Of a DNA stretch of 64,000 nt, positions 3,665 through 62,631 are shown piece by piece. Under the pieces are notes generated by a model that was not told the DNA's origin, searched no databases, and saw only the letters and a program-made list of their open reading frames with translations. The translations under genes and the position numbers were made by a program. Every line of letters starts with the position of its first letter. Positions within the stretch are counted from its first letter, which is position 1. Source of the stretch: Dokdonia sp. 4H-3-7-5 (GTDB taxonomy: Bacteria; Bacteroidota; Bacteroidia; Flavobacteriales; Flavobacteriaceae). The stretch lies in assembly GCF_000212355.1 (NCBI RefSeq), contig NC_015496.1, positions 1,674,001 through 1,738,000 on the forward strand. Reading direction: 5' to 3'.

Positions 3665-4174
3665 TTAAGCGCGCTTCTTAAAGAGAGGAACGGTAGAGCA
3701 AGCTTCTCCAAACATAATACTGCGTGCCACAGGCTGAAGTTTTTCTATAAGCAGTAAATATGCGTTAGGAGGAACTGGTTTATTAGAGCATCCCTTTATT
3801 ATCAATGGAACACCGTGATAAGGTGTCGTGTCAAGATTTGCAATAGCTGTGGTGTAAAGAATAGTTTCTAGAAGTTCTAGAGATCCTACGATGGTCTTTT
3901 GTGCAATATCTTGTAAATGGGTAGAAACAAGCATATATGCCCACGCTGGAACAATAGCATCTGTGCTGCAGTGTAAAGCCACAAATGAGCCCGAATATTG
4001 CTGCCAATCGTGATTTTTTATGCTTTCGCGAAACTGGGTTTCACGTAGAATAAATCCTTGGTCCAGCCATTCGGAAATATCTAGTGTTTCTCTCTTTCCT
4101 TTGGGATATAAATCTTCCAAATCAAAAGTGATGAGTTTACTCCCGGCGACTCTATTTATGATTTCTTCTGCCAT
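3665..4174 (-). CDS. DUF2480 family protein
   Basis: A 169-residue cytoplasmic protein with no signal peptide. It opens with EEIINRVAGSKLITFDLEDLYPKGKR and has a C-terminal YLLLIEKLQPVARSIMFGEACSTVPLFKK; this start and end pattern is recognised as DUF2480, a family found beside SUF genes in many Bacteroidetes (from memory). It contains a GCSNKPVP stretch with a conserved-looking Cys and a second Cys in GEACS, which could suit a metal or sulfur-handling role, but that is speculation. It is separated from the sufT-like gene by a terminator hairpin. A degenerate copy of the dispersed palindrome at 4023-4034 encodes FRES. Confidence 0.8.
   Translation of the reverse strand: MAEEIINRVAGSKLITFDLEDLYPKGKRETLDISEWLDQGFILRETQFRESIKNHDWQQYSGSFVALHCSTDAIVPAWAYMLVSTHLQDIAQKTIVGSLELLETILYTTAIANLDTTPYHGVPLIIKGCSNKPVPPNAYLLLIEKLQPVARSIMFGEACSTVPLFKKRA
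4023..4034. repeat. Dispersed palindrome, degenerate copy (CTTTCGCGAAAC)
   Basis: One mismatch to the CTTTCGCGAAAG core. Lies inside the DUF2480 gene, read as F-R-E. Confidence 0.6.
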
Positions 4175-4195
4175 AATAATGTAATTAAAAAGTGA

Positions 4196-4230
4196 TGATG
4201 CGTTTTAATCTATAAGTTTAAAACGCATCA
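4196..4230 (-). terminator. Terminator of the sufS-sufE-sufT transcript
   Basis: A 13-bp perfect stem TGATGCGTTTTAA / TTAAAACGCATCA with a 9-nt loop begins 9 bp beyond the 3' end of the DUF59 gene. On the minus strand it is followed by a T-rich stretch, so it separates this operon from the DUF2480 gene. Confidence 0.8.
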
Positions 4231-4238
4231 CAATACTT

Positions 4239-4556
4239 TTACAACATTCCTAATTCTAGTTTTGCTTCTTCACTCATAAGGTCTTGTGTCCATGGTGGGT
4301 CAAATGTGATTTCCACTTCACAATCTTTTACTTCTTTGAGAGATTTTACTTTCTCTTCCACCTCAAGTGGTAATGTTTCGGCTACGGGGCAGTTAGGTGT
4401 AGTAAGCGTCATAAGGATTTTGGTATCCATGTCTTCATTTACAAAAACATCATAAATCAAACCTAACTCATAAATATCTACAGGAATTTCTGGATCGTAA
4501 ATGGTTTTCAGTACTCTTACAATCTTATCTCCTAACTCTTCTGTGTTTACTTCCAT
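4239..4556 (-). CDS. sufT: SUF-associated DUF59/MIP18 protein (SufT-like)
   Basis: A 105-residue protein of the DUF59/MIP18 family, which helps mature Fe-S proteins. The sequence shows IYDPEIPVDIYELGLIYDV, the signature of the family, then TLTTPNCPVAETLP carrying the conserved Cys, and FDPPWTQDLMSEEAKLELG at the C-terminus. Length and sequence match the short Bacteroidetes SUF-cluster form. It follows sufE by 87 bp on the same strand and is closed by a strong terminator, so it is the last gene of the sufS to sufT transcript. The gene symbol rests on family and position. Confidence 0.9.
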   Translation of the reverse strand: MEVNTEELGDKIVRVLKTIYDPEIPVDIYELGLIYDVFVNEDMDTKILMTLTTPNCPVAETLPLEVEEKVKSLKEVKDCEVEITFDPPWTQDLMSEEAKLELGML

Positions 4557-5069: not shown

Positions 5070-5071
5070 AA

Positions 5072-6127: not shown

Positions 6128-7342
6128 TTACGAGAGCATGGTGACCGCTCGTTTTAATCCAGTTACAAAGGTGTCTATTTCTTCCTTGGTATTATAAAAT
6201 GAAAAAGAAGCGCGTACCGTTCCTGGTATTTTATAATACTCCATAATAGGTTGTGCACAGTGATGACCTGTGCGTACTGCAATACCTAGTTTATCAAGTA
6301 TAGTCCCTATGTCATAAGGATGAATATTGCCCACATTAAATGAAATAACGGCGGTTTTGTGTGCAGAAGTACCATAAATTTTGAGACCTTCTATTTCAAG
6401 TAATTTCTCTGTTCCGTATTGTAATAGCTCATCTTCATAGCTAGCGATATTATCAAAACCTATGGCATTCATATAATCAAGACCTGCAGCCGTTGCAATT
6501 CCTCCACAAATGTTAGGCGTTCCGGCTTCAAATTTGTGAGGTAAACCAGCATAGGTGGTTTTTTCAAAACTTACCTGATCTATCATCTCGCCACCACCTT
6601 GATAAGGAGGTAATTTAGTAAGCCATTCTTCTTTTCCGTATAGAATACCCACACCAGTAGGACCGCAAATTTTATGAGCAGAACATACGTAGAAGTCGGC
6701 GTCTAGTGCTTGTACATCTGGTTTGATGTGTGGCGTAGCTTGTGCGCCGTCTATAAGAACTGCAGCACCTACTTTATGAGCTTCCTCAATGATGTGCTCT
6801 ATAGGGTTTATAGTTCCTAATGCGTTAGATACGTGGTTTACAAAGACTAGTTTTAAGTTAGGAGATAACGCTTTCGCGAAAGCGTCCATATCCAGTTCAC
6901 CACTTTCTGTCTGAGGTATCACTTTAAGGATGGCTCCAGTTTTCTCACAAAGCATCTGCCACGGTACAATATTACTGTGATGCTCTAGAGCCGAAACTAA
7001 AACCTCTTCACCTTCTTTAAGTATGGAGGCAAAACCATGTGCTACAAGATTAATGGCATGCGTAGTTCCTGCTGTGAGAATAATCTCGTAAGGTTTTGCA
7101 GCGTTAAAATGCTTTTGAATTGTAATACGAGCCTCCTCATAAGCATCTGTTGCTTCCTGAGAAAGTGAGTGTACGCCGCGATGGATATTTGCATTATAGT
7201 TTGAGTAGTAGTCTACAATAGCATCTATCACCACTTGTGGTGTTTGTGAAGTGGCGGCATTATCAAAATAAATAAGCGGATTCCCATTGACTTCTCGTTT
7301 GAGAATAGGGAAATCTTTGCGTATTTTCTTAACGTCTAGCAT
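6128..7342 (-). CDS. sufS: Cysteine desulfurase SufS
   Basis: A 404-residue group II cysteine desulfurase (PLP aminotransferase class V). The PLP lysine is in SAHKICGPTG (Lys224), the catalytic Cys is in RTGHHCAQP (Cys362), and DFPIL and NAATSQ-P mark the N-terminus. It mobilises sulfur from cysteine for SufE and SufBCD. It follows sufD, but a strong terminator (7419-7446) lies between and a TATCTTTG box is just upstream of its start, so it is probably at least partly an independent unit. A palindrome copy encodes A-F-A-K-A at residues 154-158. Confidence 0.97.
   Translation of the reverse strand: MLDVKKIRKDFPILKREVNGNPLIYFDNAATSQTPQVVIDAIVDYYSNYNANIHRGVHSLSQEATDAYEEARITIQKHFNAAKPYEIILTAGTTHAINLVAHGFASILKEGEEVLVSALEHHSNIVPWQMLCEKTGAILKVIPQTESGELDMDAFAKALSPNLKLVFVNHVSNALGTINPIEHIIEEAHKVGAAVLIDGAQATPHIKPDVQALDADFYVCSAHKICGPTGVGILYGKEEWLTKLPPYQGGGEMIDQVSFEKTTYAGLPHKFEAGTPNICGGIATAAGLDYMNAIGFDNIASYEDELLQYGTEKLLEIEGLKIYGTSAHKTAVISFNVGNIHPYDIGTILDKLGIAVRTGHHCAQPIMEYYKIPGTVRASFSFYNTKEEIDTFVTGLKRAVTMLS
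6871..6882. repeat. Dispersed palindrome CTTTCGCGAAAG (in sufS)
   Basis: Exact core, symmetric out to ACGCTTTCGCGAAAGCGT. Read in sufS as AFAKA. Confidence 0.9.
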
Positions 7343-10060: not shown

Positions 10061-10948
10061 TTAATTAAGTATCGCTGGTGTTTGTGCAAAGTTTCCTGCA
10101 TCATGCTGGATAATCACTTTTGCATTTTCCGCTTTCGCGAAAGCTTCAAAATCCTTTATACTTTGCTCCGTTGCTGGGATATCGTAGTTGAACTGTGGTA
10201 CAATCGCATCCTTGCGGTTTTGCTCAAAATGATAGATATCTCCAGATAATAGCGTTGGTCCATTATCCTTTAAGCGTAAGAACAATATTTGGTGTCCTGC
10301 TGTGTGTCCTGGCATAGATTTTATTACCACCGTGCCATCTCCAAAAACATCCTTCTCTCCATTCAGTTTTTCTACGTTTGTAAGCTTGTTAAAGCTATCT
10401 GGCGCATAAAACGAATTTCCTTTGATGTCTTCTCCATTTGCAAAATCATATTCTGATTCTTGAACCAACCATGTAGCTTTTGCAAAATGATTTGCAGCAC
10501 CTGTGTGATCAAAATGAATGTGAGAAAACGCAATCATATCGATATCATCAGGAGTCATCCCGATACCTTTAAGTTGTGTTGTTATAGAGTCTTTGCGAGT
10601 AATGGTAAAAGCCCCTCCTTCTGGAGTATATGGTTCTTGACCTACTAGCATTTCAGGTAAACCGGTATCCCATAAAAGAGTTCCTTTAGGGTGCTTGATG
10701 ACAAAAAATGCATCTGCAAGCTCTTTTGATTCTCCTTTGTAAGTGTCGCCTTGTGCAAATAAGTTTAAGTTATTTGCCATTACAGTACCACCGTCTAGTT
10801 TATATAAAGTTACCTCAGGAAGTTCTTGTGTAGCGGCTGACTCTTTTTGATCTTCTGCTTTTTGCTTTCCATCTTCATATCCTTTCTTGAATTCTTCACA
10901 AGAAATTGTAGTGATGGCAAGAGCGGCAATTAATAATATATTTTTCAT
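10061..10948 (-). CDS. Lipoprotein metallo-beta-lactamase-fold hydrolase (AHL-lactonase-like)
   Basis: A 295-residue protein with lipobox TISC (Cys17) and a charged linker, then an MBL-fold hydrolase with HIHFDH (143-148), PGHTAGHQ (His215) and LLSGDIYHF (Asp237). The layout (LLWDTGLP and GGAFTITRKDSITTQLKGIG before the metal motif) resembles N-acyl homoserine lactonase-type enzymes such as AttM/AiiA; the true substrate is not evident. It is exported and lipid-anchored, so it acts outside the cytoplasm, in contrast to its suf neighbours. It lies 44 bp after sufB. A palindrome copy near the C-terminus encodes AFAKA. Confidence 0.85.
   Translation of the reverse strand: MKNILLIAALAITTISCEEFKKGYEDGKQKAEDQKESAATQELPEVTLYKLDGGTVMANNLNLFAQGDTYKGESKELADAFFVIKHPKGTLLWDTGLPEMLVGQEPYTPEGGAFTITRKDSITTQLKGIGMTPDDIDMIAFSHIHFDHTGAANHFAKATWLVQESEYDFANGEDIKGNSFYAPDSFNKLTNVEKLNGEKDVFGDGTVVIKSMPGHTAGHQILFLRLKDNGPTLLSGDIYHFEQNRKDAIVPQFNYDIPATEQSIKDFEAFAKAENAKVIIQHDAGNFAQTPAILN
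10132..10143. repeat. Dispersed palindrome CTTTCGCGAAAG (in MBL lipoprotein gene)
   Basis: Exact core, symmetric only to GCTTTCGCGAAAGC. Read as AFAKA. Confidence 0.88.
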
Positions 10949-12438: not shown

Positions 12439-12562
12439 GTTTCTTTTTTCAATGTGTGATAGAAAAGTATTCCTGCCCTAAGGGTAACTTTTCATGGTGT
12501 GCTAGTTTTCTTGTATTAAGGGTGTTATCATGAAAACTGTAATATATTTTAAATTGGTTACG

Positions 12563-12574
12563 CTTTCGCGAAAG
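12563..12574. repeat. Dispersed palindrome, longest perfect copy (30 bp), between sufA and sufB
   Basis: The core is CTTTCGCGAAAG and the perfect dyad extends to 12553-12582 (TTGGTTACG.. to ..CGTAACCAA). It is intergenic, 10 bp beyond the sufA stop. There is no U-tract, so it is not a standard terminator. Confidence 0.92.
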
Positions 12575-12591
12575 CGTAACCAACTAAGTTA

Positions 12592-12921
12592 TTATAGAGA
12601 AAAGCTTTCTCCGCATCCACAGGTACGCTGTGCATTTGGATTGTTAAAAACAAATCCTTTTCCATTAAGTCCGCCACTATATTCTAGTGTAGTACCTATT
12701 AAATAAAGGAAACTCTTCTTGTCTACTATTAGCTTTACATCATTATCTTCAAAAACTTTATCATCTTCTTGATGCGTTTTGTCAAAATGAAGATCGTATG
12801 ATAAACCACTGCAACCACCACTTTTTACGCCTACGCGCACATAGTCCGTAGTTACATCAAAACCGTCTTCCTGCATGAGGCTTGCGATTTTAGTTTTTGC
12901 TTGTGAATCTACTTTAATCAT
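12592..12921 (-). CDS. sufA: HesB/IscA-type Fe-S carrier (SufA)
   Basis: A 109-residue A-type carrier with the three metal-binding cysteines in GVKSGGCSGLSY and the C-terminal CGCGESF. It is thought to carry nascent clusters to targets or supply iron to the SUF scaffold. The start is placed at the ATG at 12921 (MIKVDSQAKTK): a TTG 21 nt upstream is in frame but lies inside a TATATTTG promoter box, so it cannot be the start of a transcript from that box. It heads the SUF region on the minus strand. Confidence 0.93.
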   Translation of the reverse strand: MIKVDSQAKTKIASLMQEDGFDVTTDYVRVGVKSGGCSGLSYDLHFDKTHQEDDKVFEDNDVKLIVDKKSFLYLIGTTLEYSGGLNGKGFVFNNPNAQRTCGCGESFSL

Positions 12922-16594: not shown

Positions 16595-16606
16595 CTTTCG
16601 CGAAAG
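16595..16606. repeat. Dispersed palindrome CTTTCGCGAAAG (between nrdA and hydrolase)
   Basis: Exact, symmetric over 20 bp (TACGCTTTCGCGAAAGCGTA), 25 bp downstream of the nrd terminator and 7 bp from the stop of the opposing gene. Confidence 0.92.
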
Positions 16607-19083: not shown

Positions 19084-21135
19084 TTGAAAAATATTATCAC
19101 CTCTTTTATCTGTTCGATGGCATTCTTTTATGGTGCCTATAGTCAGACGGGATCTATACCTAATCAGACTATTGATACTATTGTAATTTCCTCATCGAGA
19201 ATTAAGAGTAATGTACAGCAAATACCTGCAGCCGTTTCTGTTATTACTGCGAGCAAAGAAGATGCTACTAGACAGCAACTATCCTTACAAGAGTATGTAC
19301 AGCAAGTGCCAGGTGTGTTTACTCAAAATGCAAACAACTTTGCTCAGGATTTACGAATATCCATTCGTGGTTTTGGAGCAAGATCTAGTTTTGGGATACG
19401 AGGTATAAAACTTATTGTAGATGGGATTCCAGAGACCACTCCAGATGGGCAAGGACAACTTGATAATATTAATCTTGGGATTATTGATCGTATTGAGATT
19501 ACAAAAGGAGCAAGTGCTAGCCTTTACGGTAATGCTTCTGGTGGTGTGATTGATGTAATCACAAAATCTTTTGACACACTGGCGGGAAATATCACCTCAG
19601 TAAAAGCTGGAATAGGTGCTTTTGAATTTCAAAATTATCAAGCCACGGCTACCATAGGAGATTCAAATGCAAACTATACCTTCCATGGTAATTATGCGAC
19701 TAGCGATGGTTACAGAGATCAAAGCGGTTTTGAGCAAATAAACACCAATTTTAAAGGGCAATTTAAAATAGGTGAGAATACTTTTCTAACGGCTATTCTT
19801 AATTATGCAGACTCACCACAGGCAGATGACCCTGGCGGATTGACGCTGGAGGAAGTTAACGCTAATAGACGACAGGCAAGAGATAGAAATGTGCAGTTTA
19901 AAACTGGTGAGGCCATAGAACAGTTTAAAGTAGGAACCAGCCTAGCGTGGAATAAGAATGAGAATACCACCGTAAATGCCTATGCTTTTTATAGCAACCG
20001 ACAGTTTAATGGGTTGTTGCCATTTGAATTTGGTGGTATTGTAGACTTATCACGCAATTACTTAGGGCAAGGAACGAGTATAACTTACAAGAAAAATAAG
20101 AATACCATACGCGCAGGATACGACTTTGCTTATCAAAATGATCGCAGAAACAGATTTAGAAACCTTGATGGAGAAGAGGGAAGTCAAACGCTGGGACAGC
20201 GTGAGAAATTTACTAACCTAGGTGTTTATATTACAGACCACCTTTCGCTAGGTAAATTATTGATTACAGCCGGAGCGAGGTTTGATTACAACAAACTTTC
20301 GGCAGATGATGATTTACTGGATAACGGTGATGATTCTGGAAGTCTTACATTAAATTCTTTTAACCCTAGTGTTGGTGTTAGTTACGCTTTCGCGAAAGCA
20401 TTATCTCCATACATGAATGTCGCAACAAGTTTTGAGACACCGTCATTATCAGAATTATCATCAAATCCTGATGGTTCTATAGGATTTAATGAAAATCTAA
20501 AAGCGCAAAAGGCAGCTAGCTTTGAGGTGGGTTTAAAAGGGACTATTGCAAGCAAGTTGCAATATCAACTCGCTGCGTTTTTGATAAACACAAAAGATGA
20601 TTTAGTGCCTTTTGAGTTGGCGGAATTTCCAGATCGTGAGTTTTTTAGAAATGCAGGAAAAACTAAGCGTCATGGTGTTGAGGTTGAGGCTTCATACAGA
20701 GCATTGCCCTTAGGAAACGGTTGGTTAAACGCTACGGGTTCTTATACCTACTCAGACTTTACCTATGATGAATTTGAAACGCCAAACGGAGATTTTGACG
20801 GTAATTTCTTACCGGGCATTGCAAAGCATATGTCTAGTGTAGGGTTACAATATGCAGGTGAAACTGGTATAAGTGCAAGCATAAATACAAATTTTATAGG
20901 AGAGCAATTTGCTCAAGATAGTAACGAGACTACTATAGATGGATATGAGCTCGTTAATGTGAGAGCCAGCTATGAGACATTATTTAGAGAGGTGAGTTTA
21001 AAGCCTTACGTTGGGATCAACAACGTGTTAGATCAAAAATATACAGATAACGTGCGCATTAATGCCTTTGGAGGAAGGTTTTATGAACCTGCGCCGGGAC
21101 TCACTATTTTTGGAGGAATCACACTCGAATTTTAA
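19084..21135 (+). CDS. TonB-dependent outer-membrane receptor (siderophore type)
   Basis: About 683 residues. Signal peptide KNIITSFICSMAFFYGAYSQ, a TonB-box-like start DTIVISSSRI, a plug domain (about 50-160: QQIPAAVSVITASKED, RISIRGFGARSSFGIRGIKLIVDGIPET, GASASLYGNASGGVIDV) and a 22-strand barrel ending in GGITLEF with terminal Phe. It lacks the CarboxypepD_reg domain of the larger receptor at 42 kb and resembles ferric-siderophore or citrate receptors. No ATG precedes the signal peptide, so a TTG start is inferred: 19084 (MKNI) fits a signal peptide better than 19075. The TauE gene follows after 4 nt. A palindrome copy encodes YAFAKAL in the barrel. Confidence 0.9.
   Translation: MKNIITSFICSMAFFYGAYSQTGSIPNQTIDTIVISSSRIKSNVQQIPAAVSVITASKEDATRQQLSLQEYVQQVPGVFTQNANNFAQDLRISIRGFGARSSFGIRGIKLIVDGIPETTPDGQGQLDNINLGIIDRIEITKGASASLYGNASGGVIDVITKSFDTLAGNITSVKAGIGAFEFQNYQATATIGDSNANYTFHGNYATSDGYRDQSGFEQINTNFKGQFKIGENTFLTAILNYADSPQADDPGGLTLEEVNANRRQARDRNVQFKTGEAIEQFKVGTSLAWNKNENTTVNAYAFYSNRQFNGLLPFEFGGIVDLSRNYLGQGTSITYKKNKNTIRAGYDFAYQNDRRNRFRNLDGEEGSQTLGQREKFTNLGVYITDHLSLGKLLITAGARFDYNKLSADDDLLDNGDDSGSLTLNSFNPSVGVSYAFAKALSPYMNVATSFETPSLSELSSNPDGSIGFNENLKAQKAASFEVGLKGTIASKLQYQLAAFLINTKDDLVPFELAEFPDREFFRNAGKTKRHGVEVEASYRALPLGNGWLNATGSYTYSDFTYDEFETPNGDFDGNFLPGIAKHMSSVGLQYAGETGISASINTNFIGEQFAQDSNETTIDGYELVNVRASYETLFREVSLKPYVGINNVLDQKYTDNVRINAFGGRFYEPAPGLTIFGGITLEF
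20387..20398. repeat. Dispersed palindrome CTTTCGCGAAAG (in TonB receptor)
   Basis: Exact core, symmetric to GCTTTCGCGAAAGC. Read as AFAKA. Confidence 0.88.
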
Positions 21136-21139
21136 TATT

Positions 21140-21898
21140 GTGACAGAAGTACAAACATATATTATTGCTATAATAGGAGGTCTTATCGCTGGCGGGATCA
21201 ATACCCTTGCAGGAAATGGAAGCGCCATTACCTTAACGATTCTTACGGAGGTGCTTGGGCTGCCAGGCAATATTGCAAATGGAACTAACCGCATTGGGAT
21301 TTTTACACAATGCTCTGCAACCTCGTGGGTTTTTTATAAGAATGGAAGGCTTGATATCGCAAAGAATAAAAAATATATAATTCCCATTTTTATAGGAGCT
21401 ATTGCGGGAGCTATTCTTGCCATAAATGTAAGCAATGAGCAGTTTAGAGCGGTGTTCAAATTCATGATGGTGTTCATGCTGCTAGCTGTATTAGTGAAGC
21501 CTAAGCGCTGGCTCAGAGAAACAGATCTTACGTTTAAACCTAAATGGTACATTTATATCCCATTGCTTTTTGCTCTTGGATTTTATGGAGGATTTATCCA
21601 GATGGGTATGGGCGTGTTTTTCCTTATAATCATGGTGTTAGGAATGCGCTTTAATATCATAGAAAGTAATGCGCTCAAAAGTTTTGTAATAGGACTTTAT
21701 ACGCTCTTTGTAATTGCAATTTTTCACTACCAAGGGCTCATTGATTGGAAACTGGGAGGCATTATGGCAATAGGACAAACTACAGGTGGGTTTCTTACTG
21801 CTCGTTTCGCTAGTAAGAATAAATGGGCAGATCAAGTAGCATATTACGTTCTTATTATTGTGCTTATAGGTGCCATAGGAAAGATGTTTTTGTTTTAA
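21140..21898 (+). CDS. TauE/SafE-family (TSUP) permease
   Basis: A permease of about 252 residues with roughly eight hydrophobic helices. The first helix IIAIIGGLIAGGINTLAGNGSAI and the second-half repeat ALGFYGGFIQMGMGVFFLIIM carry the paired glycine-rich motifs of the TSUP family, whose members move sulfite, sulfonates or other organic anions. The GTG at 21140, four nt after the TonB receptor stop, is preferred because longer in-frame starts would overlap the receptor gene by up to 70 nt and lack hydrophobic sequence. Likely co-transcribed with the receptor, but no shared substrate can be named. Confidence 0.88.
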   Translation: MTEVQTYIIAIIGGLIAGGINTLAGNGSAITLTILTEVLGLPGNIANGTNRIGIFTQCSATSWVFYKNGRLDIAKNKKYIIPIFIGAIAGAILAINVSNEQFRAVFKFMMVFMLLAVLVKPKRWLRETDLTFKPKWYIYIPLLFALGFYGGFIQMGMGVFFLIIMVLGMRFNIIESNALKSFVIGLYTLFVIAIFHYQGLIDWKLGGIMAIGQTTGGFLTARFASKNKWADQVAYYVLIIVLIGAIGKMFLF

Positions 21899-21905: not shown

Positions 21906-21917
21906 CTTTCGCGAAAG
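21906..21917. repeat. Dispersed palindrome CTTTCGCGAAAG (TauE - ThuA spacer)
   Basis: Exact, symmetric over CGCTTTCGCGAAAGCG, starting a few bp after the TauE stop. Confidence 0.9.
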
Positions 21918-25017: not shown

Positions 25018-25806
25018 TCAAGTGCTAGACGAGGCAGATAGAAAGTCAAGTATATTATTAATAGTCTCTGTAGCATTAGTAATATGTGACATATGTCCGC
25101 TTTCTATGATAGAAAAGAAATTTGTAGACTTCTTATAACTTATTTTATGAGTTTCTGCATCAATGAGCAAATCAGAATTTCCTAAAATCATTCCCGTTGT
25201 GATAGCAGTTGTTTTCCAAAACTCAGAACTGTCTGGTCTATCTTTCATTCCAGAATTTGCAGCAATATATCCTTGCACAGGTGTATTAAGCGCTAGTTCA
25301 AGTGCATACTTTATTTCTGTCGTATGATTCGTACTTGCTTTTTTGTCAAAAAGATTTATAAATGACATTCTAACAAGTTGTTCATATTGTTTTTTTGCCA
25401 TCACATTTGCTCGTGATCTCAATTTTTTTCTAGCGTCGTCATCAGGTTCTGGAGTGGAGTTAAGAAGACATAATTTTGATACAAATTCTGGATACGCTTT
25501 CGCGAAAGCGATACCCACATAACCTCCCATGGAGTGTCCTATTATCGTAATTTTTTTAAGCGCTAGCTGATTTGCGACAGCAGCAACTGCAGCAGCCATT
25601 TCTTCCATACTATGAACATAACCTACAGACTCTGAAAATCCATGGCCTAATAAGTCAATGCAGATGACGCGGTGGTGATCACACAAAACGCTAAGGAAAT
25701 GATCCCACATCATGTGATTTCCTAAGAATCCGTGTAGTAAGATTACGGGTGTTCCTTTTCCTTGATCTGTATAAAATATGGAAGCACCTTTGTGGTTAAT
25801 AGTCAT
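25018..25806 (-). CDS. Alpha/beta-fold hydrolase (MenH/BioH-like)
   Basis: About 262 residues from the ATG at 25806. Core motifs are VILLHGFLGNHMMWD (oxyanion hole), LLGHGFS, nucleophile elbow IIGHSMGGYVG, and the late acid and His in ILGNSDLLID and ESGHMSHI. The fold covers many esterases, lactonases and thioesterases, so the substrate cannot be given. An upstream in-frame TTG at 25827 lies in a GATATTTG promoter-like box, which is why the ATG is preferred. Divergent from brnQ with a 35-bp spacer. A palindrome copy encodes IAFAKAYPE straight after the elbow helix. Confidence 0.88.
   Translation of the reverse strand: MTINHKGASIFYTDQGKGTPVILLHGFLGNHMMWDHFLSVLCDHHRVICIDLLGHGFSESVGYVHSMEEMAAAVAAVANQLALKKITIIGHSMGGYVGIAFAKAYPEFVSKLCLLNSTPEPDDDARKKLRSRANVMAKKQYEQLVRMSFINLFDKKASTNHTTEIKYALELALNTPVQGYIAANSGMKDRPDSSEFWKTTAITTGMILGNSDLLIDAETHKISYKKSTNFFSIIESGHMSHITNATETINNILDFLSASSST
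25497..25508. repeat. Dispersed palindrome CTTTCGCGAAAG (in hydrolase gene)
   Basis: Exact, symmetric over CGCTTTCGCGAAAGCG. Read as AFAKA. Confidence 0.88.
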
Positions 25807-25841: not shown

Positions 25842-27116
25842 ATGAGAATGACCAAACAAACCTTCATCACAGCCTTTGCTTTATTTTCTCTTTTTTTCGG
25901 TGCAGGTAACTTAATCTTGCCATCCTTTCTAGGTTATAATGCCGGGAGCTCTTGGTTATTTGTGCTGGCAGGTTTTCTTATTTCGGCGGTGGTAGTGCCT
26001 ATTCTTGCAATTTACGGCCATGCAAGACTGCAAGGAACGTTGATTGATTTTGCAAAAAAAGTTTCACCACTCTTTGCGCTTCTATATACAATTGTTGTTT
26101 ATGCTATTTCTATCGCATTGCCGGGCCCGCGTACTGCCTCTGTGACTTATGAGATGGCAATTGCTCCCTATTTTGAAATTTCTAGTTGGCTGTGGAGTAC
26201 GATATACTTTGGATTAGTCCTGTTATTTGTGCTTAATAGATCTAAGATGATGGATCTAGTAGGTAAATATCTTACTCCTGCTATTCTCATTATTTTGGCA
26301 TTGGTGATTGGTATTGGGATATTTGGAGAGTATGAGCCTATGCGTGCATCAATTTTTGATAGTACGCTCACTAGCGGAATCTTAGAAGGTTATCAAACTT
26401 TTGATGCCATAGGTGGAGTGGTTGTAGGAGGAGTGATCGTGATTTCTCTTGGTTTTAAAGAGGGCTCCAGTAGAGCAAAGCAACGTTTATTAACTAGAGC
26501 AGGAATCATTGCAGGTATAGGATTGTTACTAATATATGGAGGACTTATCTATCTAGGCGCTCTAAGAAGTGGTGGTATAGAGATGACAGATCGTACGGCA
26601 CTTCTCAACCTTCTTAGTACAGATACATTAGGAGTTATAGGTACTAAGGTGCTGGCTGTTTTAGTGAGTTTAGCTTGCTTTACAACGGCTGTAGGAATCG
26701 TAACAGGAACTGCAGATTTTGTAAAAGGAATCCTAGGGAACTCGCAAGTAGCTTATACCATCACAGCAATTCTAGGAGCCATACTTGGTGTTGTAATGGG
26801 GCAACTAGATGTAAATTCTATCATTATAGTTGCTGTACCAGCACTTATGTTTATTTACCCTATCACTATCGTGTTAATATTACTTAACGCAATGCCTAGA
26901 AGGTGGACGGCACCAGTTGTGTTTAGAGCAGTAGTAATTGCTACTATACTCTTTAGCGCACCAGATTTTTGGGCCTCTGTAGGTTTTGGTGACCAGATGA
27001 AAGTGCTGCAGGAAATGATTCCGCTAGGCACCGTAAGTTTAGGTTGGTTATTACCTGCTGTGGTGACTTATATAATGGTGAGTGCTATTACGCTTTCGCG
27101 AAAGCGTACCATCTAA
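25842..27116 (+). CDS. brnQ: Branched-chain amino acid carrier (LIVCS family)
   Basis: A 424-residue transporter with about 12 hydrophobic helices. The N-terminal FALFSLFFGAGNLILPSFLG is the LIVCS hallmark, followed by GPRTASVTYEMAIAP and QTFDAIGGVVVGGVIV. It is expected to import Leu, Ile and Val with a cation. The last codons (ITLSRKRTI) are formed by a full palindrome copy, so the tail was probably created or remodelled by it. The stop overlaps the stop of the opposing ACT-domain gene. A possible promoter, TTTG-N20-TATATTGG (25789-25820), lies in the divergent hydrolase gene. Confidence 0.93.
   Translation: MRMTKQTFITAFALFSLFFGAGNLILPSFLGYNAGSSWLFVLAGFLISAVVVPILAIYGHARLQGTLIDFAKKVSPLFALLYTIVVYAISIALPGPRTASVTYEMAIAPYFEISSWLWSTIYFGLVLLFVLNRSKMMDLVGKYLTPAILIILALVIGIGIFGEYEPMRASIFDSTLTSGILEGYQTFDAIGGVVVGGVIVISLGFKEGSSRAKQRLLTRAGIIAGIGLLLIYGGLIYLGALRSGGIEMTDRTALLNLLSTDTLGVIGTKVLAVLVSLACFTTAVGIVTGTADFVKGILGNSQVAYTITAILGAILGVVMGQLDVNSIIIVAVPALMFIYPITIVLILLNAMPRRWTAPVVFRAVVIATILFSAPDFWASVGFGDQMKVLQEMIPLGTVSLGWLLPAVVTYIMVSAITLSRKRTI
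27093..27104. repeat. Dispersed palindrome CTTTCGCGAAAG (3' end of brnQ)
   Basis: Exact, 20-bp symmetric. Read as L-S-R-K, five codons before the stop. Confidence 0.9.
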
Positions 27117-29256: not shown

Positions 29257-29268
29257 CTTTCGCGAAAG
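29257..29268. repeat. Dispersed palindrome CTTTCGCGAAAG (lysC - pepP spacer)
   Basis: Exact core, symmetric over AGCTTTCGCGAAAGC apart from the outer base; 6 bp from the terminator. Confidence 0.88.
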
Positions 29269-34812: not shown

Positions 34813-34824
34813 CTTTCGCGAAAG
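34813..34824. repeat. Dispersed palindrome CTTTCGCGAAAG (upstream of sdhC)
   Basis: Exact core in the 350-bp spacer between the BNR-gene terminator and sdhC. The rest of that spacer is AT-rich with no gene except for the sdh promoter. Confidence 0.88.
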
Positions 34825-38495: not shown

Positions 38496-38507
38496 CTTTC
38501 GCGAAAA
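38496..38507. repeat. Dispersed palindrome, degenerate copy (CTTTCGCGAAAA)
   Basis: One mismatch to the core, between the sdhB stop and its terminator. Confidence 0.6.
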
Positions 38508-39103: not shown

Positions 39104-39115
39104 CTTTCGCGAAAG
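39104..39115. repeat. Dispersed palindrome CTTTCGCGAAAG (beside the PiT terminator)
   Basis: Exact, 20-bp symmetric (39100-39119), about 20 bp from the terminator of the phosphate transporter gene. Confidence 0.92.
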
Positions 39116-41753: not shown

Positions 41754-42119
41754 ATGAAAAAGATAATGATGATAGCAGTTGCATTTTTAATGGTTGTTTC
41801 AATGCAAGCTCAAGAAAAAAATAATAAGCCTACATATGTAGAAGTAGGAGACTTAGTTAAGGCAACTTTATATTTTGATAATGGTGAAGTAAGTCAAACA
41901 GGTTTTTATACTAAGGAGGGACAGGTTACTGGACAATGGATTAGTTATAATCGTGACGGAGATAAAACTGCCAAAGCTCAATATGACAATGGAACTAAAG
42001 TAGGTACTTGGTTCTTTTGGTCAAGTGATAAACTTACTGAGGTAGACTATCAAGATTCACGAGTAGCTTCTGTTAATACTTGGAAGAATGAAGGTTCAAA
42101 AGTTGCTAGTAATAGATAA
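41754..42119 (+). CDS. Small secreted MORN-like (YwqK-type) protein
   Basis: A 121-residue protein with signal peptide MKKIMMIAVAFLMVVSMQAQ followed by two to three MORN-type repeats: ATLYFDNGEVSQTGFYTKEGQVTGQW, AQYDNGTKVGTWFFW and DSRVASVNTWK. Related proteins are annotated as YwqK antitoxins, but no toxin gene is adjacent and the signal peptide makes that label doubtful. It lies between a good promoter and a strong terminator, as a monocistronic unit. Function unknown. Confidence 0.85.
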   Translation: MKKIMMIAVAFLMVVSMQAQEKNNKPTYVEVGDLVKATLYFDNGEVSQTGFYTKEGQVTGQWISYNRDGDKTAKAQYDNGTKVGTWFFWSSDKLTEVDYQDSRVASVNTWKNEGSKVASNR

Positions 42120-42124: not shown

Positions 42125-42136
42125 CTTTCGCGAAAG
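42125..42136. repeat. Dispersed palindrome CTTTCGCGAAAG (next to terminator)
   Basis: Exact, symmetric over ACGCTTTCGCGAAAGCGT, directly after the stop at 42119 and 18 bp before a terminator. Confidence 0.92.
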
Positions 42137-46556: not shown

Positions 46557-46568
46557 CTTTCGCGAAAG
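46557..46568. repeat. Dispersed palindrome CTTTCGCGAAAG (divergent spacer before dgt)
   Basis: Exact, symmetric over 24 bp (46551-46574, TTTACG.. to ..CGTAAA), between the lipoprotein gene and dgt, which are divergent. Confidence 0.92.
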
Positions 46569-50815: not shown

Positions 50816-52579
50816 TTATGCAAGATTTTTAAGAAGGCTAGTAATTGCGTTTACAGATATTCCAGCTTCTTCATACTGCTCCTCAACCGTGGCATGTTCT
50901 ATAAACGCGTCTGGTACTCCTAGTACGGTAAGTTTGCCTTTGTACGCTTTCGCGAAAGCGTAATCACCCACAACACTTCCCAGTCCACCTATTTTTGAGC
51001 CATCTTCTACAGTGATGATATGTTTATAGGTTTTAAAAACCTCATCTAATAAGTCGGTGTCAATTGGTTTTAAAAAGCCAATATCATAAATACCGCATTC
51101 ATTTTTAGATTGTTTTACCGCTGTCAAAACATTCTTTAAAATGTTTCCTATACTTATAATGGCAACATCTTTACCTCCCTGAATACAACGTCCTTTACCT
51201 ATTTCAATCTTTTTAAAAGGAAGTTGCCAGATTATATGGATACCGCGACCACGAGGGTAACGTATCGCAATAGGGTTGTCTAATCCAAGTTGTGCTGTGT
51301 ACAAAATATTACGAAGTGCAATCTCATCACTTGGGGCATATATAATGAGATTAGGAATACAATTGAGATAGGCCAAATCAAAGACACCCTGATGAGTGCC
51401 GCCGTCTTGCCCCACCAGTCCTGCTCTATCTAAACAGAAAATCACAGGTAAGTTTTGAAGCGCAACATCATGAATAATTTGGTCGTATGCGCGTTGTAAA
51501 AAAGTAGAATAGATGTTGCAATACACAACCATTCCCTCTGTAGTCATACCTGCCGAAAGCGTTACGGCATGCTGCTCTGCGATGCCTACGTCAAAGGCAC
51601 GATCTGGAAAAGCAGCAATCATGTACTTAAGGGAACTTCCCGTAGGCATGGCAGGTGTAATCCCTATTATTTTCTTATTAAGTGTAGCGAGCTCCACGAT
51701 AGTATGCCCAAAAACATCTTGATATTTTGGAGGCTCTGGTATTTCTTCTTTTTTTACTCTAATGCCAGTAATGGCGTCAAATTTCCCAGGTGCGTGATAG
51801 GTGATCTGTTCTTGTTCGGCGAGGGCTAGTCCCTTTCCTTTGGTGGTAATTACATGTAAGAATTTTGGACCTTCTACTTTTTTGAGAGCTTCTAAGGTCC
51901 CTAGTAGTTTAGGTAAATCGTGACCGTCTATCGGGCCAAAATATTTAAAATTAAGAGCTTCAAAGATGTTGTCTTCCCTAGCAGTGCCTTTTTTTACGTT
52001 AGTTAGATATTTTTTTAGAGCTCCAACGCTGGGATCAATACCTATAGCATTGTCGTTAAGGATAACAAGCAAGTTTGCGTTAGTGACTCCGGCATGGTTT
52101 AGCCCTTCAAAAGCCATACCGCTAGCTATGGAGGCATCACCTATTACGGCGATGTGATGTCTATCTTTTTGACCTTTTAATGTTGCAGCCATCGCCATTC
52201 CCAAAGCTGCAGATATAGAGGTGCTGCTGTGGCCAGTTCCAAAGGTGTCATATACACTCTCCATACGATTAGGAAAACCACTTATGCCACCTTTTTGCCT
52301 GTTAGTATGGAAAATATCTTTACGTCCCGTTAATATTTTATGTCCATAAGCCTGGTGACCCACGTCCCAGATAAGATTATCTTCTGGGGTGTTAAATATA
52401 TAGTGTAGGGCAATTGTAATTTCAACAACTCCTAAACTAGCGCCTAGATGTCCTTCCTTAGTTGCAATAATATCAATAATAAAACGACGAAGCTCTACCG
52501 CAAGTTGGGGTAGTTGCTCTTGCGTCAATAGACGCAAATCGCTTGGTGTTTTTATAGTATCAAGAATACTCTCTGGCAT
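50816..52579 (-). CDS. dxs: 1-deoxy-D-xylulose-5-phosphate synthase
   Basis: About 587 residues from the ATG at 52579 (MPESILDTI). It joins pyruvate and glyceraldehyde-3-phosphate in the non-mevalonate isoprenoid pathway. Landmarks are GHLGASLGVVEITIALHY, DVGHQAYGHKILTGR, the ThDP segment GDASIASGMAFEGLNHAG with NDNAIGI, FDVGIAEQHAVTLSAGM and DRAGLVGQDGGTHQG. It is a little shorter than the E. coli enzyme (620). The upstream ATG at 52594 is excluded because a TACCTTTG promoter box lies between. A palindrome copy gives GDYAFAKAYKG in the C-terminal domain. Confidence 0.95.
   Translation of the reverse strand: MPESILDTIKTPSDLRLLTQEQLPQLAVELRRFIIDIIATKEGHLGASLGVVEITIALHYIFNTPEDNLIWDVGHQAYGHKILTGRKDIFHTNRQKGGISGFPNRMESVYDTFGTGHSSTSISAALGMAMAATLKGQKDRHHIAVIGDASIASGMAFEGLNHAGVTNANLLVILNDNAIGIDPSVGALKKYLTNVKKGTAREDNIFEALNFKYFGPIDGHDLPKLLGTLEALKKVEGPKFLHVITTKGKGLALAEQEQITYHAPGKFDAITGIRVKKEEIPEPPKYQDVFGHTIVELATLNKKIIGITPAMPTGSSLKYMIAAFPDRAFDVGIAEQHAVTLSAGMTTEGMVVYCNIYSTFLQRAYDQIIHDVALQNLPVIFCLDRAGLVGQDGGTHQGVFDLAYLNCIPNLIIYAPSDEIALRNILYTAQLGLDNPIAIRYPRGRGIHIIWQLPFKKIEIGKGRCIQGGKDVAIISIGNILKNVLTAVKQSKNECGIYDIGFLKPIDTDLLDEVFKTYKHIITVEDGSKIGGLGSVVGDYAFAKAYKGKLTVLGVPDAFIEHATVEEQYEEAGISVNAITSLLKNLA
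50947..50958. repeat. Dispersed palindrome CTTTCGCGAAAG (in dxs)
   Basis: Exact, 20-bp symmetric (50943-50962). Read as YAFAKAY. Confidence 0.9.
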
Positions 52580-53114: not shown

Positions 53115-53126
53115 CTTTCGCGAAAG
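53115..53126. repeat. Dispersed palindrome CTTTCGCGAAAG (tadA - TIGR03915 spacer)
   Basis: Exact, 20-bp symmetric (53111-53130), between two convergent genes 58 bp apart; no other hairpin is present there. Confidence 0.92.
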
Positions 53127-55291: not shown

Positions 55292-55303
55292 CTTTCGCGA
55301 AAG
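55292..55303. repeat. Dispersed palindrome CTTTCGCGAAAG (before nitrilase gene)
   Basis: Exact, 20-bp symmetric (55288-55307), in the divergent spacer between the radical SAM gene and the nitrilase gene. Confidence 0.92.
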
Positions 55304-57243: not shown

Positions 57244-57255
57244 TTTTCGCGAAAG
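57244..57255. repeat. Dispersed palindrome, degenerate copy (TTTTCGCGAAAG)
   Basis: One mismatch to the core; symmetric inside TTTCGCGAAA. Confidence 0.6.
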
Positions 57256-58226: not shown

Positions 58227-58232
58227 GTTTTT

Positions 58233-59565: not shown

Positions 59566-61193
59566 TCAAACTCATAGAAAAGCGGCCTGTTCTCACAATC
59601 ATTATCGTGGTTGGAGTTTTGTTATTGCCTTTTCTTGATGTACTAGAAGTGACGATCATGGAAGCTCGCAACTTTGTGACAGCGAGAGAAATGCTTACAG
59701 ATGGTAACTGGATACTCACCACCATGAATGGTGAGCCACGTTATGAAAAACCGCCTCTGCCCACTTGGCTATCGGCAATTTCTGGAGCTATTTTTGGTGT
59801 AAATAGTGTCTGGGCAATGCGTTTTCCAGCCGTATTAATGGTGATGTTGCTGGGGAGTATGATATATACGCTTTCGCGAAAGCTGACTCTTACTAAACGC
59901 AATAGTCTTATTAATGCACTCGTAAGTATAACGTCATTATATGTTATTCTTATAGTTTTTGAAGCACCGTGGGATATATATGCACATGCATTTATGCTCA
60001 CGGCAATTTATTGCATTTTTAAGGGATTGAGTGAAGATACATCACGCGGGAATATATCGACTTGGCTCATCGCTGCTATATGTATAGGAGCGTCTATATT
60101 GAGCAAAGGGCCTGTTTCTTTATACGTACTGTTCTTGCCATTTCTGATTGCTTATGTCGTAATCTATAGAAGAGAAACAGAACGTAGAAAGTGGTTGCCA
60201 GTAACGCTTGTTTTGCTAGGAGGGTTATTATTAGGTTTTAGTTGGTACGGTTATGTACGTGCTATAGATCCGGAAACTTTTGCAGCGATAGCATCAAAAG
60301 AAACAGGAAACTGGACGAGTTATAATGTGAGGCCATTTTACTACTACTGGAGCTTCTTTGTACAAAGCGGATTATGGACAATTCCAGCCTTTATAAGTCT
60401 ATTGTATCCTTATCTGAAGACTAGGGTTTCAAATAGAAAAGCATATCGTTTTACATTTTTGTGGACCATTATCGCTGTCGTACTACTTTCTGTCATTCCA
60501 GAGAAAAAATCTCGATACTTGATGCCTGTACTGATACCACTAGCCATGAATGTTGGTTTTTATATCACGTATCTCGTAAAACGTTTTAAAGAATTAAAAA
60601 GTAGAAAAGAGATTGTTCCCGTGTATTTCAATGTGGGCTTATTGCTTTTAATATTTATAGCTGCTCCTATTGCATTTATTTACCTAGCTATATCACACTC
60701 AATAGCTGTAAATGCTATTGGCGTAATTGCTTTTATGGTAGTTCTTATAGTTGCACTATATATTATACGTGCTTTGATGCGTGGAAATATATACCATGTT
60801 TTCCTGCTTATTGTCCTCGCTGTTATTTGTACGGCCATAGGAAGTCTTTCTGTTCTTAAAAACAACCTGTTTAATGAATATTACAGCGCATTTATCGATG
60901 AGGTTCTCGAAAGTAGCACACCACTTTATAGTTTTGAAATGGGCGCTCCTGAGGTGTTCTGGGGAGCTGAAAGGAAAATAGTTATGCTTGACTCTGAAGA
61001 GCCTGTACTGGTAGATGAAAGATTCTACTTGTTATTATGTTCAGATTGTGAAACTGTTCTTGCAGAGAAGTTTAATGGCTATCAAGCAACGTATATTCAA
61101 GACTTTGATTTTAATTATAACGCAAGCGGCAGTAGAGCTTATAAAGGTAGAAAGTCTGGAAAAGTGTATGAAATGATTAAGGTGGGAAAATAG
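59562..61193 (+). CDS. GT39/ArnT-like membrane glycosyltransferase
   Basis: A 543-residue GT-C enzyme with about 11-12 transmembrane helices. The first periplasmic loop has EVTIMEARNFVTAREML, GNWILTTMNGEPRYEKPPLPTWL, the ArnT/PMT-type motif with acidic and P-P-L residues. A C-terminal periplasmic domain follows the helices. It should transfer a sugar from polyprenyl phosphate to lipid A, LPS or a protein on the periplasmic side. The TTG start overlaps the preceding TGA. A palindrome copy encodes YTLSRKLTL in a loop. Convergent with the next gene, 1 nt apart. Confidence 0.9.
   Translation: MIKLIEKRPVLTIIIVVGVLLLPFLDVLEVTIMEARNFVTAREMLTDGNWILTTMNGEPRYEKPPLPTWLSAISGAIFGVNSVWAMRFPAVLMVMLLGSMIYTLSRKLTLTKRNSLINALVSITSLYVILIVFEAPWDIYAHAFMLTAIYCIFKGLSEDTSRGNISTWLIAAICIGASILSKGPVSLYVLFLPFLIAYVVIYRRETERRKWLPVTLVLLGGLLLGFSWYGYVRAIDPETFAAIASKETGNWTSYNVRPFYYYWSFFVQSGLWTIPAFISLLYPYLKTRVSNRKAYRFTFLWTIIAVVLLSVIPEKKSRYLMPVLIPLAMNVGFYITYLVKRFKELKSRKEIVPVYFNVGLLLLIFIAAPIAFIYLAISHSIAVNAIGVIAFMVVLIVALYIIRALMRGNIYHVFLLIVLAVICTAIGSLSVLKNNLFNEYYSAFIDEVLESSTPLYSFEMGAPEVFWGAERKIVMLDSEEPVLVDERFYLLLCSDCETVLAEKFNGYQATYIQDFDFNYNASGSRAYKGRKSGKVYEMIKVGK
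59871..59882. repeat. Dispersed palindrome CTTTCGCGAAAG (in GT39 gene)
   Basis: Exact core with symmetric GC flanks. Read as L-S-R-K. Confidence 0.88.
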
Positions 61194-61194
61194 T

Positions 61195-62631
61195 TCAACT
61201 CTCAATGGCGGTCTTTGCCATTACAGTAACCTTAGAAGGTCTATAAATTTCCCAGATAAAAAATACGATTACCACAACATACTCTATTGCCACTAGGCAT
61301 AAGTTTTCATTAAATCCATTTGCGCCGTATGCGGCATAGCTTAGCATCACGGTTGCACTCCATACTAGTGGAAAGCGATAGCGTGTAAACACACACAAAA
61401 GTAAAGGAGTAGCCACATACCAAGGGTGAACTGTGGTAGACATTAAAAAGTAAAAGGAGATACCAATAAGTATAGCGGTAATAGTTGCTTGTAATGATCT
61501 GTTATTTCTAAAAAAGGCTATAACTATCAGAAAACCTAACACAATCTTAGGAAGTAAAGGGCCTACATCTCCTATGATATTCCAGCCTATCGTTTGATAA
61601 CCTATGTATCTAATGATATAGTAGACGCTAGCGTTAAATTCAAATTTCTTAAACCATAACGCAATGGATGCTCCAAAGTTTTCGGCAAACTCATTTGTGA
61701 GAAATGGTAAGAAGGTTAATATGACTACTCCAATCACAATCAAATAGAAATAAACGAGACGAGGTAGGTTTTTTGTTATTTCGCGAAAGCGGACTTTCCA
61801 AGGATAAGAGCTTCTAAAGTGGGTTGTTTTTCTATCACCACGAGTTAAGAAGTATTGCATGAAAAGTGGCAGAAAGAGTAGCGGTAATAACTTAGTTGAT
61901 ATAGATAATGCAATCATCACAGCACTTAATATCCACTTACCTTGAGCCAGCAAATACAACGACAGGACTACAAAAAACAACATTACAGACTCAAAATGCA
62001 GATTGCCTGTCATCTCAATAATGATAAATGGATTGAGCCCGTACCAGAAGATATTATGGATGGGTAATCCTAGTTTTTGCAATAATTTTTTGCCGTAAAT
62101 GATAATCCCAACATCTGCTAGAATAATAGTAATTCTAAAAACGATAGCTGCGCCAATGATGCTATTGTCTGAGAATAATCCAGCAATTGCAAATATAAGT
62201 TGGTTTACGGGCGGGTAATTTGTAAAGTGACTTCCGTTAAGTGCTCCCATTCCCTCATAGAGCTGTCTTGCTTGCGCTACAATCTGGAGATTACCTACTT
62301 CTATATAGCTTTGTGGAGTCGTTAGGTACGGATTAAGACCTTGTACAAACATGCGTCCGTCCCATATAAAGCGATAAAAATCTTGAGAGAGATTTGGGAT
62401 TACAGGTATAAATATGAGTCTTAATGCTACTGCAAAAACGAGTAGCAAAGAGAAGTCATTTTTGCCTTTGCTTACTATGAAGTAAAAGCAAGCAAAAAGT
62501 ATGCTGTACAGACTTAGTAGGAGTGCGGTGTTAGCTCTTTCTAGTTGAAAAGCAAAGACGTAATAGGTAACTAAGGAAACAATCGCTAGTGCGATAGGAG
62601 TTTTTTGATATTTCCAAAGACGTTCTATCAC
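61195..62631 (-). CDS. GT-C mannosyltransferase-like membrane protein (GT87/MptB-like)
   Basis: A 478-residue protein with about 12 hydrophobic helices. The first extracytoplasmic loop contains NLSQDFYRFIWDGRMFVQGLNPYLT and the second NYPPVNQLIF, motifs of polyprenyl-phosphate-mannose-dependent GT-C enzymes. The acceptor is unknown. The GTG start overlaps the stop of the upstream GT2 gene by 4 nt (GTGA), so they are coupled. A degenerate palindrome copy lies inside and gives RFREI. Confidence 0.85.
   Translation of the reverse strand: MIERLWKYQKTPIALAIVSLVTYYVFAFQLERANTALLLSLYSILFACFYFIVSKGKNDFSLLLVFAVALRLIFIPVIPNLSQDFYRFIWDGRMFVQGLNPYLTTPQSYIEVGNLQIVAQARQLYEGMGALNGSHFTNYPPVNQLIFAIAGLFSDNSIIGAAIVFRITIILADVGIIIYGKKLLQKLGLPIHNIFWYGLNPFIIIEMTGNLHFESVMLFFVVLSLYLLAQGKWILSAVMIALSISTKLLPLLFLPLFMQYFLTRGDRKTTHFRSSYPWKVRFREITKNLPRLVYFYLIVIGVVILTFLPFLTNEFAENFGASIALWFKKFEFNASVYYIIRYIGYQTIGWNIIGDVGPLLPKIVLGFLIVIAFFRNNRSLQATITAILIGISFYFLMSTTVHPWYVATPLLLCVFTRYRFPLVWSATVMLSYAAYGANGFNENLCLVAIEYVVVIVFFIWEIYRPSKVTVMAKTAIES
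61778..61789. repeat. Dispersed palindrome, degenerate copy (ATTTCGCGAAAG)
   Basis: One mismatch to the core, in the GT87-like gene, read as F-R-E. Confidence 0.6.

What the first reader, a model, noticed from the sequence alone, without database searches (positions are those of the whole stretch)
4023..61789. Very frequent dispersed palindrome CTTTCGCGAAAG with no explained function
Eighteen exact copies of the 12-mer CTTTCGCGAAAG (cores starting at 6871, 10132, 12563, 16595, 20387, 21906, 25497, 27093, 29257, 34089, 34813, 39104, 42125, 46557, 50947, 53115, 55292, 59871) plus four one-mismatch copies (4023, 38496, 57244, 61778) occur in 64 kb. Chance expectation for one 12-mer here is far below one (64000/4^12 is about 0.004). 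Most extend symmetrically to 16-20 bp, one to 30 bp. Copies lie in unrelated genes and spacers, with no flanking target duplication or terminal repeats. This recalls HIP1 in cyanobacteria or DNA uptake sequences; possible roles are chromosome organisation, strand/replichore marking, a methylation or repair site, or DNA uptake. The selective agent is unknown.
Basis: partly seen in the sequence, partly recalled or inferred. Interest (0 to 1): 0.75.

Follow-up and report, generated by a model that had tools for sequence, protein, structure and literature searches.

The report
Evenly spaced genome-wide DNA palindrome
A marine bacterium and its close relatives carry the same short mirror-symmetric DNA word about once every three to four thousand letters, built by point mutations and kept for a very long time, which suggests that an unknown protein reads the chromosome at regular intervals.

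Summary
In detail: 18 exact and 4 one-mismatch copies, 0.08 expected. The genome (a Dokdonia, name inferred) has 786 exact copies, its 17 searched congeners 383-937. In 249 family genomes drawn, only two other genera have hundreds, one sister to Dokdonia, one distant.

The unit is long: core TTTCGCGAAA, arms to TACGCTTTCGCGAAAGCGTA, weak symmetric bias to about ±25 bp. Genic copies arose by substitution, not insertion. Copies stay in place in diverged congeners: 51 of 61, 5.2 expected. They are evenly spaced in Dokdonia and in the distant genus; E. coli Chi is not. For 6 of 8 losses examined another site lies within 1.4 kb.

Methylation, REP/RAYT, terminator, ParB-paralogue and chance readings were tested and fail or weaken. 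Best reading: a genome-wide site for an unknown dimeric DNA-binding protein acting over a few kb, most likely in chromosome organisation; a palindromic DNA-uptake sequence is a close rival.

The parts
4023..4034 (.). site, one-armed (CTTTCGCGAAAC), inside DUF2480 gene 3665-4174
   Evidence: a site at the same place in D. pacifica, in two of three Leeuwenhoekiella loci, in a Planktosalinus locus and in g11
6871..6882 (.). site, 18-bp palindrome, inside gene 6128-7342 (called sufS from its position in the suf cluster, no family search), encodes AFAKA
   Evidence: shared with sister genus G230; 85 homologues outside bearers, none gapped at the site
10132..10143 (.). site, 14-bp palindrome, inside ORF 10061-10948
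   Evidence: shared with G230
12563..12574 (.). site, 30-bp palindrome, intergenic
   Evidence: lost in D. pacifica
16595..16606 (.). site, 20-bp palindrome, between convergent ORFs
20387..20398 (.). site, 14-bp palindrome, in TonB-dependent receptor gene
21906..21917 (.). site, 16-bp palindrome, just after ORF 21062-21898
25497..25508 (.). site, 16-bp palindrome, in alpha/beta hydrolase gene
27093..27104 (.). site, 20-bp palindrome, at 3' end of ORF 25842-27116
29257..29268 (.). site, 14-bp palindrome, between convergent ORFs; lost in G016 and G003
34089..34100 (.). site, 16-bp palindrome, in sortilin-like gene
34813..34824 (.). site, 14-bp palindrome, intergenic
38496..38507 (.). site, one-armed (CTTTCGCGAAAA), 11 bp after the end of ORF 37739-38485
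39104..39115 (.). site, 20-bp palindrome, intergenic
42125..42136 (.). site, 18-bp palindrome, just after ORF 41754-42119
46557..46568 (.). site, 24-bp palindrome, between divergent ORFs
50947..50958 (.). site, 20-bp palindrome, in the DXP synthase gene
   Evidence: the g11 homologue also has a site there
53115..53126 (.). site, 22-bp palindrome, between convergent ORFs; lost in G004 and G009
55292..55303 (.). site, 20-bp palindrome, between divergent ORFs; G014 has this site and a second one mapping 359 bp away (window coordinate 55652), G011 and G015 have only the second
57244..57255 (.). site, one-armed (TTTTCGCGAAAG), intergenic
59871..59882 (.). site, 14-bp palindrome, in PMT-family glycosyltransferase gene
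   Evidence: kept in 11 of 11 congeners aligned there
61778..61789 (.). site, one-armed (ATTTCGCGAAAG), in ORF 61195-62631; lost in G009, G014 and G015

Best explanation
The palindrome is a genome-wide recognition site for a symmetric, probably homodimeric, double-strand DNA-binding protein that has not been identified. Each site serves a few kb around it, so what is maintained is one site about every 3-4 kb and not a function of particular genes. The most likely role is chromosome organisation or marking (nucleoid structuring, domain anchoring). Shown: the long unit, origin of genic copies by substitution, conservation in place, even spacing in two separate lineages. Inferred: the dimeric reader, its kb range, and the chromosome-organising role.
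For: Long unit: TTTCGCGAAA 265 times in 864 kb against 0.84 expected, and TCGCGA not enriched outside it. Symmetric flank bias to about ±25 bp in both genic and intergenic sites. Even spacing: CV 0.597 against 1.028±0.058 in a null that weights genic and intergenic DNA, 0 of 2000 simulations as low, 9.8% of gaps below 1 kb against 34.5%; in g11 CV 0.489 (null 0.908), no gap below 1 kb against 25.6%; in other Dokdonia stretches CV 0.613 (null 0.948), many of these being orthologous to the window and so not independent. Kept in place: 51 of 61 comparisons with the ten most diverged Dokdonia partners, 5.2 expected from other 10-mers of the same alignments. For 6 of 8 losses examined another site maps 48-1357 bp away, and in G014 an old and a new site coexist. 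No stretch of the 864-kb sample is free of sites: 2 to 11 per 20 kb.
Against: No reader gene found. Recalled chromosome-organising sites (parS, Noc, SlmA, MatP) have tens of copies, not hundreds. In the 12 genomes of the genus at least 99% complete (own included) copy number does not rise significantly with genome size (Spearman 0.36, p 0.25) and density falls (-0.73, p 0.007), so large accessory regions seem to do without sites. The 6 of 8 rest on three distinct sites, one of them mapped by extrapolation beyond an alignment end; two losses (G004 at 53116, D. pacifica at 12564) have no mapped replacement, and two losses in G009 were not examined.
Confidence: 0.45

Rival explanations
1. A palindromic DNA uptake sequence: competent cells take up DNA carrying the site, recombination spreads it, and molecular drive accumulates it in long-resident DNA; neighbours within one fragment are redundant, which evens the spacing.
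For: Same mode of origin as Pasteurellacean USS, substitutions and not insertions, and long-term stability of single sites (passages of PMC1626085). Surplus of one-mismatch cores: 57 against 18-27 expected, highest ratio of 20 palindromes of the same composition. ComEC family present in 17 of 17 genomes searched. Self-DNA preference reported for Riemerella columbina of the same family (passages of PMC7965970). A polysaccharide locus, a class often exchanged (recalled), is site-poor, 2 in 20 kb.
Against: Known uptake sequences are not palindromes and not as evenly spaced as a compaction role would need (passages of PMC1939737); USS spacing is about 1 kb (passages of PMC7811141) against 3-4 kb here. 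ComEC is equally present in the 10 non-bearers searched. The same paper reports that Flavobacterium johnsoniae was not competent, so competence is not universal in the family. I know of no test of competence in Dokdonia, and search listing 91 showed none.
Confidence: 0.35
2. A Chi-like signal that stops a resection nuclease and loads RecA, or otherwise protects self DNA.
For: Density near that of Chi (99 Chi in 350 kb of E. coli). The 5' flank on each strand is T/G-rich and C-poor, as a RecA-friendly strand would be (recalled).
Against: E. coli Chi is not evenly spaced (CV 1.33, null 0.98 in 50-kb windows; 0.79, null 0.86, p 0.18 in 10-kb windows), and known Chi words are short and not palindromic (recalled).
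Confidence: 0.08
3. A HIP1-like word produced by a DNA methyltransferase plus methyl-directed repair.
For: Palindromic, highly iterated, clade-specific like HIP1 (PMC4390886: abstract, section 2.3 and the first part of section 3.4). That model also predicts saturation at a fixed density.
Against: The unit is 14 bp or more, and outside full sites TCGCGA (61 against 58-66) and TTCGCGAA (1 against 0.9 or 7.4, by two models) are not enriched. C5-methylase PF00145 missing from bearers G000, G004, G281, G230 but present in G011, G016, G027; PF01555 not above cut-off in G000, G004, G011, G016, G281, above it in G027 and G230. Other methylase families were not searched.
Confidence: 0.06
4. A selfish REP/REPIN or MITE repeat.
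For: Some one-armed sites occur as close pairs with intact arms outward (L157 12516/12565, L170 365/462), though one pair has them inward (L156 6149/6722). Y1_Tnp matches occur in bearers G011 (weak), G027 and G281.
Against: Of 235 alignments of genic sites with homologues outside bearer genomes 4 are gapped at the site; 143 of 265 sites are in ORFs; Y1_Tnp/RAYT not found in bearers G000, G004, G016, G230.
Confidence: 0.02
5. Bidirectional transcription terminators or mRNA hairpins.
For: The RNA of the longest copy folds well (-17.3 kcal/mol, z -4.8 for 12545-12595; the only one folded); sites are enriched 16-24 bp after stop codons (26 seen, 8.9 expected).
Against: TTTT within 8 bases follows 6 of 250 stem ends, and ends with 4 or more A (110) outnumber those with 4 or more T (47); a separate terminator-like hairpin lies beside a site in L333 (read by eye); over half of sites are inside ORFs.
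Confidence: 0.03

Closest known systems
HIP1 and alternate HIPs of cyanobacteria
   Same: Highly iterated palindrome in coding and non-coding DNA, clade-specific.
   Different: 14-22 bp instead of 5-8 bp; 1 per 3-4 kb instead of about 1 per kb; two methyltransferase families tested are missing from several bearers; evenly spaced (HIP1 spacing was not tested here); Flavobacteriaceae.
DNA uptake sequences (USS/DUS) of Pasteurellaceae and Neisseriaceae
   Same: Substitution-born, long stable, flanking bias (as in USS), surplus of one-mismatch forms, denser between genes, clade-specific.
   Different: Perfect palindrome, strongly even spacing, lower density, uptake not shown.
Chi sites
   Same: Similar density.
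   Different: Chi is short and directional (recalled) and not evenly spaced in the E. coli sample.
parS, Noc and SlmA sites
   Same: Palindromes of about 14-20 bp read by dimers (recalled).
   Different: Hundreds of copies all round the chromosome; no extra ParB-family gene in the 7 bearer genomes searched.
REP/REPIN elements
   Same: Hundreds of short palindromic copies.
   Different: No insertion at genic copies, no RAYT in four of seven bearers, over half in genes.

Membership tests
HIP1-type palindromes | Highly over-represented palindrome across the genome | tested here: met
   786 copies; 265 against 0.84 in 864 kb for the 10-mer
HIP1-type palindromes | Cognate DNA methyltransferase in the genome | tested here: inconclusive
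   PF00145 and PF01555 each missing from several bearers, both from G000, G004 and G281, so neither can be a shared cause; other methylase families not searched
HIP1-type palindromes | The word GCGATCGC or a short alternate HIP with a methylase core | tested here: not met
   unit is 14 bp or more; hexamer core not enriched outside it
DNA uptake sequence | Arises by substitution, not insertion | tested here: met
   4 of 235 alignments gapped at the site; codons of gene 6128-7342
DNA uptake sequence | Competence machinery present | tested here: met
   ComEC family in 17 of 17 genomes, 7 bearers and 10 others; not discriminating; other competence genes not searched
DNA uptake sequence | Non-palindromic word | tested here: not met
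   perfect palindrome of at least 14 bp in 198 of 265 sites
DNA uptake sequence | Raises uptake of DNA by competent cells | not testable with these tools
   needs a transformation assay
REP/RAYT | RAYT transposase in the genome | tested here: not met
   none in bearers G000, G004, G016, G230 (matches in G011, G027, G281)
REP/RAYT | Extragenic, inserted element | tested here: not met
   143 of 265 in ORFs; genic copies not inserted
Chi site | Stops RecBCD/AddAB | not testable with these tools
   none
ParB/Noc binding site | A ParB-family reader beyond the chromosomal ParB | tested here: not met
   one ParB match in each of 7 bearer genomes
Intrinsic terminator | Stem followed by U-run | tested here: not met
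   TTTT after 6 of 250 stem ends

The most novel reading that the evidence does not exclude
Probability: 0.28. Interest if true: 0.92.

Novelty: new variant of a known kind. Interest (0 to 1): 0.72.

Why it matters
The function of highly iterated genomic palindromes has been open since HIP1. This case speaks against two usual explanations (a short methylase site, a mobile repeat) and adds new facts: the same 14-bp word in two separate lineages, even spacing in both, and another site near some lost ones. Those point to a function with a range of a few kb. Not in print as far as these full-text searches show by listing: for the word (ten papers print the 10-mer, none the 12-mer; not opened), Dokdonia with palindromes and repeats, Flavobacteria and palindromes (25 of 492 listed), related genera, uptake sequences in the family (15 of 161 listed), evenly spaced chromosome motifs (none).

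Tried and rejected
Methylation: PF00145 and PF01555. Mobile REP: PF01797 and gap test. ParB/Noc paralogue: PF02195. Terminator. A different word ('dialect') in other genera: 15 non-bearer stretches and 77 named non-Dokdonia loci of 5-21 kb, no 10-mer palindrome with G+C above 4 copies, no dispersed 11-mer with G+C above 4 copies. Some of the closest site pairs were inspected for an autoregulated reader gene; none was recognised. Sites shared between g11 and Dokdonia: 3 of 6 g11 sites and 14 of 23 Dokdonia/G230 entries with a homologue have a site within 26 bases; the 23 entries are about 7 distinct places counted per species, 3 of them shared, so parallel gain and common ancestry are not separated. 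Sites in mobile islands outside bearers are kept in 54 of 76 comparisons, 17.4 expected (both directions counted, not independent), so conservation is not seen in bearers alone. Six blind congener stretches and four others were aligned to the G000 sample for more gains and losses; three gave aligned sites, 3 of 4 sites shared.
Full report
What is there. All 22 places of the finding are real. The genome holds 786 exact 12-mers and none of the reversed word. The genus name comes from the best SufD matches in named genomes, which are Dokdonia at 99, 96 and 83% identity; the window's own record carries no name.

Distribution. All 18 genomes of the genus searched (own and 17) carry 383-937 copies. 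Among 249 family genomes drawn, apart from the window's own genome and one congener, only G027 and G281 (one genus, g11; 586 and 685) and G230 (445) have hundreds; the next highest are 19, 19, 13 and 11. Among 395 phylum genomes drawn, searched with the 14-mer and including no other bearer, nobody but G000 exceeds 6. A tree of Suf proteins (three or four per genome, some partial) puts G230 next to Dokdonia (support 0.977), Leeuwenhoekiella next to both (0.999 for the three), and g11 far away beside G127 (0.992). So there are two separate bearer lineages, or one old origin with many losses; one search does not decide.

Low-copy genomes. In G116 all 19 copies lie in one 78-kb stretch and in G091 18 of 19 lie on two contigs; G184 and G082 have about ten scattered copies each besides a pair spaced as in the islands. 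Several islands share a 933-bp spacing and ORFs that read as copper or heavy-metal efflux genes, and one is 96% identical over 8 kb between G127 and the window's own genome. I read these as mobile islands exchanged with bearer hosts; the gene names are my reading of the ORFs, not a family search.

Anatomy. In a 864-kb sample (40 stretches plus the window) there are 265 TTTCGCGAAA and 205 12-mers; 122 of 265 are outside ORFs although about 90% of the sample falls in ORFs as called by a simple script. The 10-mer core is the strict part; GC flanks it in 462 of 530 arms, 198 sites have both arms, 66 one and 1 none, which by my arithmetic is close to independent arms. Flanks are T/G-rich before and A/C-rich after the site to about 25 bp, in genic and intergenic sites alike; pairing between the two flanks is no higher than column composition gives. 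In ORFs 80 of 143 sites use the reading frame that gives AFAKA-like peptides.

Origin. In gene 6128-7342 Dokdonia and G230 encode DAFAKALS where two Leeuwenhoekiella loci encode DAFEQLLS, without a gap. Over 24 entries of genic sites with homologues outside bearer genomes (one site entered twice through overlapping stretches), 4 of 235 alignments are gapped at the site, 3 of 231 without the double. Most of the 235 come from four window genes, and some targets are islands that carry the site themselves (23 have the identical peptide). Genic sites therefore arise by substitution, amino-acid changes included. Intergenic sites could not be tested this way.

Maintenance. Of 100 site comparisons with Dokdonia relatives 90 keep the core exactly; in the ten most diverged partners 51 of 61, where 5.2 are expected from other 10-mers of the same alignments. 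A caveat is that a kept site helps an intergenic alignment to form. Of the ten losses, eight were examined for a nearby site: six have one mapped within 1.4 kb (55293: 359 bp away in G015 and G011, while G014 has both; 61779: about 50 bp away in G015 and G014; 29258: 1,357 bp away by extrapolation in G016 and G003), two have none mapped (53116 in G004, 12564 in D. pacifica). The events are few and no significance is claimed.

Spacing. Sites repel each other and also avoid long gaps: CV 0.597 against 1.028±0.058 with genic and intergenic weights, 0 of 2000 simulations as low; the first 100 sites of the genome agree (CV 0.74, p 0.0012). g11 shows it too (CV 0.489, no gap under 1 kb; 12 stretches from two species, overlap between them not checked), as do other Dokdonia species (CV 0.613; largely orthologous to the window). 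Islands in G116/G091 are weaker (CV 0.675, p 0.04). E. coli Chi (99 sites in 350 kb, CV 1.33 or 0.79 by window size, neither significantly even), one other E. coli octamer and the one control palindrome that met the count criterion in G000, TTTTAAAA, show no such order.

What it is not, as far as tested. A short methylase word (families), a REP, a terminator, a site of an extra ParB. A gene-regulatory site is unlikely because sites sit in and between unrelated genes.

How it most likely works. The symmetry points to a dimeric reader of double-stranded DNA; the spacing points to an action over a few kb. Chromosome organisation and DNA uptake are the two processes that fit best. PMC1939737 uses absence of palindromes and lack of even spacing to argue that uptake sequences are not compaction signals (passages); this motif has both features, which is why I put organisation first, at 0.45, and uptake second, at 0.35.

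Literature seen: PMC4390886 (abstract, section 2.3, first part of section 3.4); PMC1939737, PMC1626085, PMC7965970 and PMC7811141 (passages only); others as search listings only. Statements on Noc, SlmA, MatP, RecA and Chi biology are recalled.

Noticed in passing
L152 (G000:C1:1271251-1291250) and L258: An 8-kb stretch of the window's own genome is 96% identical to a stretch of G127, a non-bearer genus, and carries motif copies: recent transfer of an island.
   Followed up: partly
L257 1086-17918: Island whose ORFs read as P-type ATPases, a CusA-like efflux pump and a multicopper oxidase (by eye), found in several genera with motif places 933 and about 2446 bp apart.
   Followed up: partly
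L157 12516-12565; L170 365-462: One-armed sites form close pairs with the intact arms outward, 49 and 97 bp apart; the L157 pair lies after a 2490-aa ORF that looks like SprA (by eye). Meaning unknown.
   Followed up: no
window 3665-4174: The site in the DUF2480 gene is also present in two Leeuwenhoekiella loci and one Planktosalinus locus that otherwise lack the motif; the peptide FRES there may pre-adapt the codons.
   Followed up: partly
L173 (G000:C1:3135751-3155750): Polysaccharide biosynthesis locus, 32.8% GC, only 2 sites in 20 kb.
   Followed up: partly
G184 and G082: About ten scattered motif copies each, more than most family genomes have; of 8 of their sites compared with held Dokdonia/G230 DNA, 3 had a homologue and none of these had a site there.
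   Followed up: partly
window 581-656 and 1315-1390: Two tRNA-Pro genes (GGG and TGG anticodons) in opposite orientation at the window's left end.
   Followed up: no
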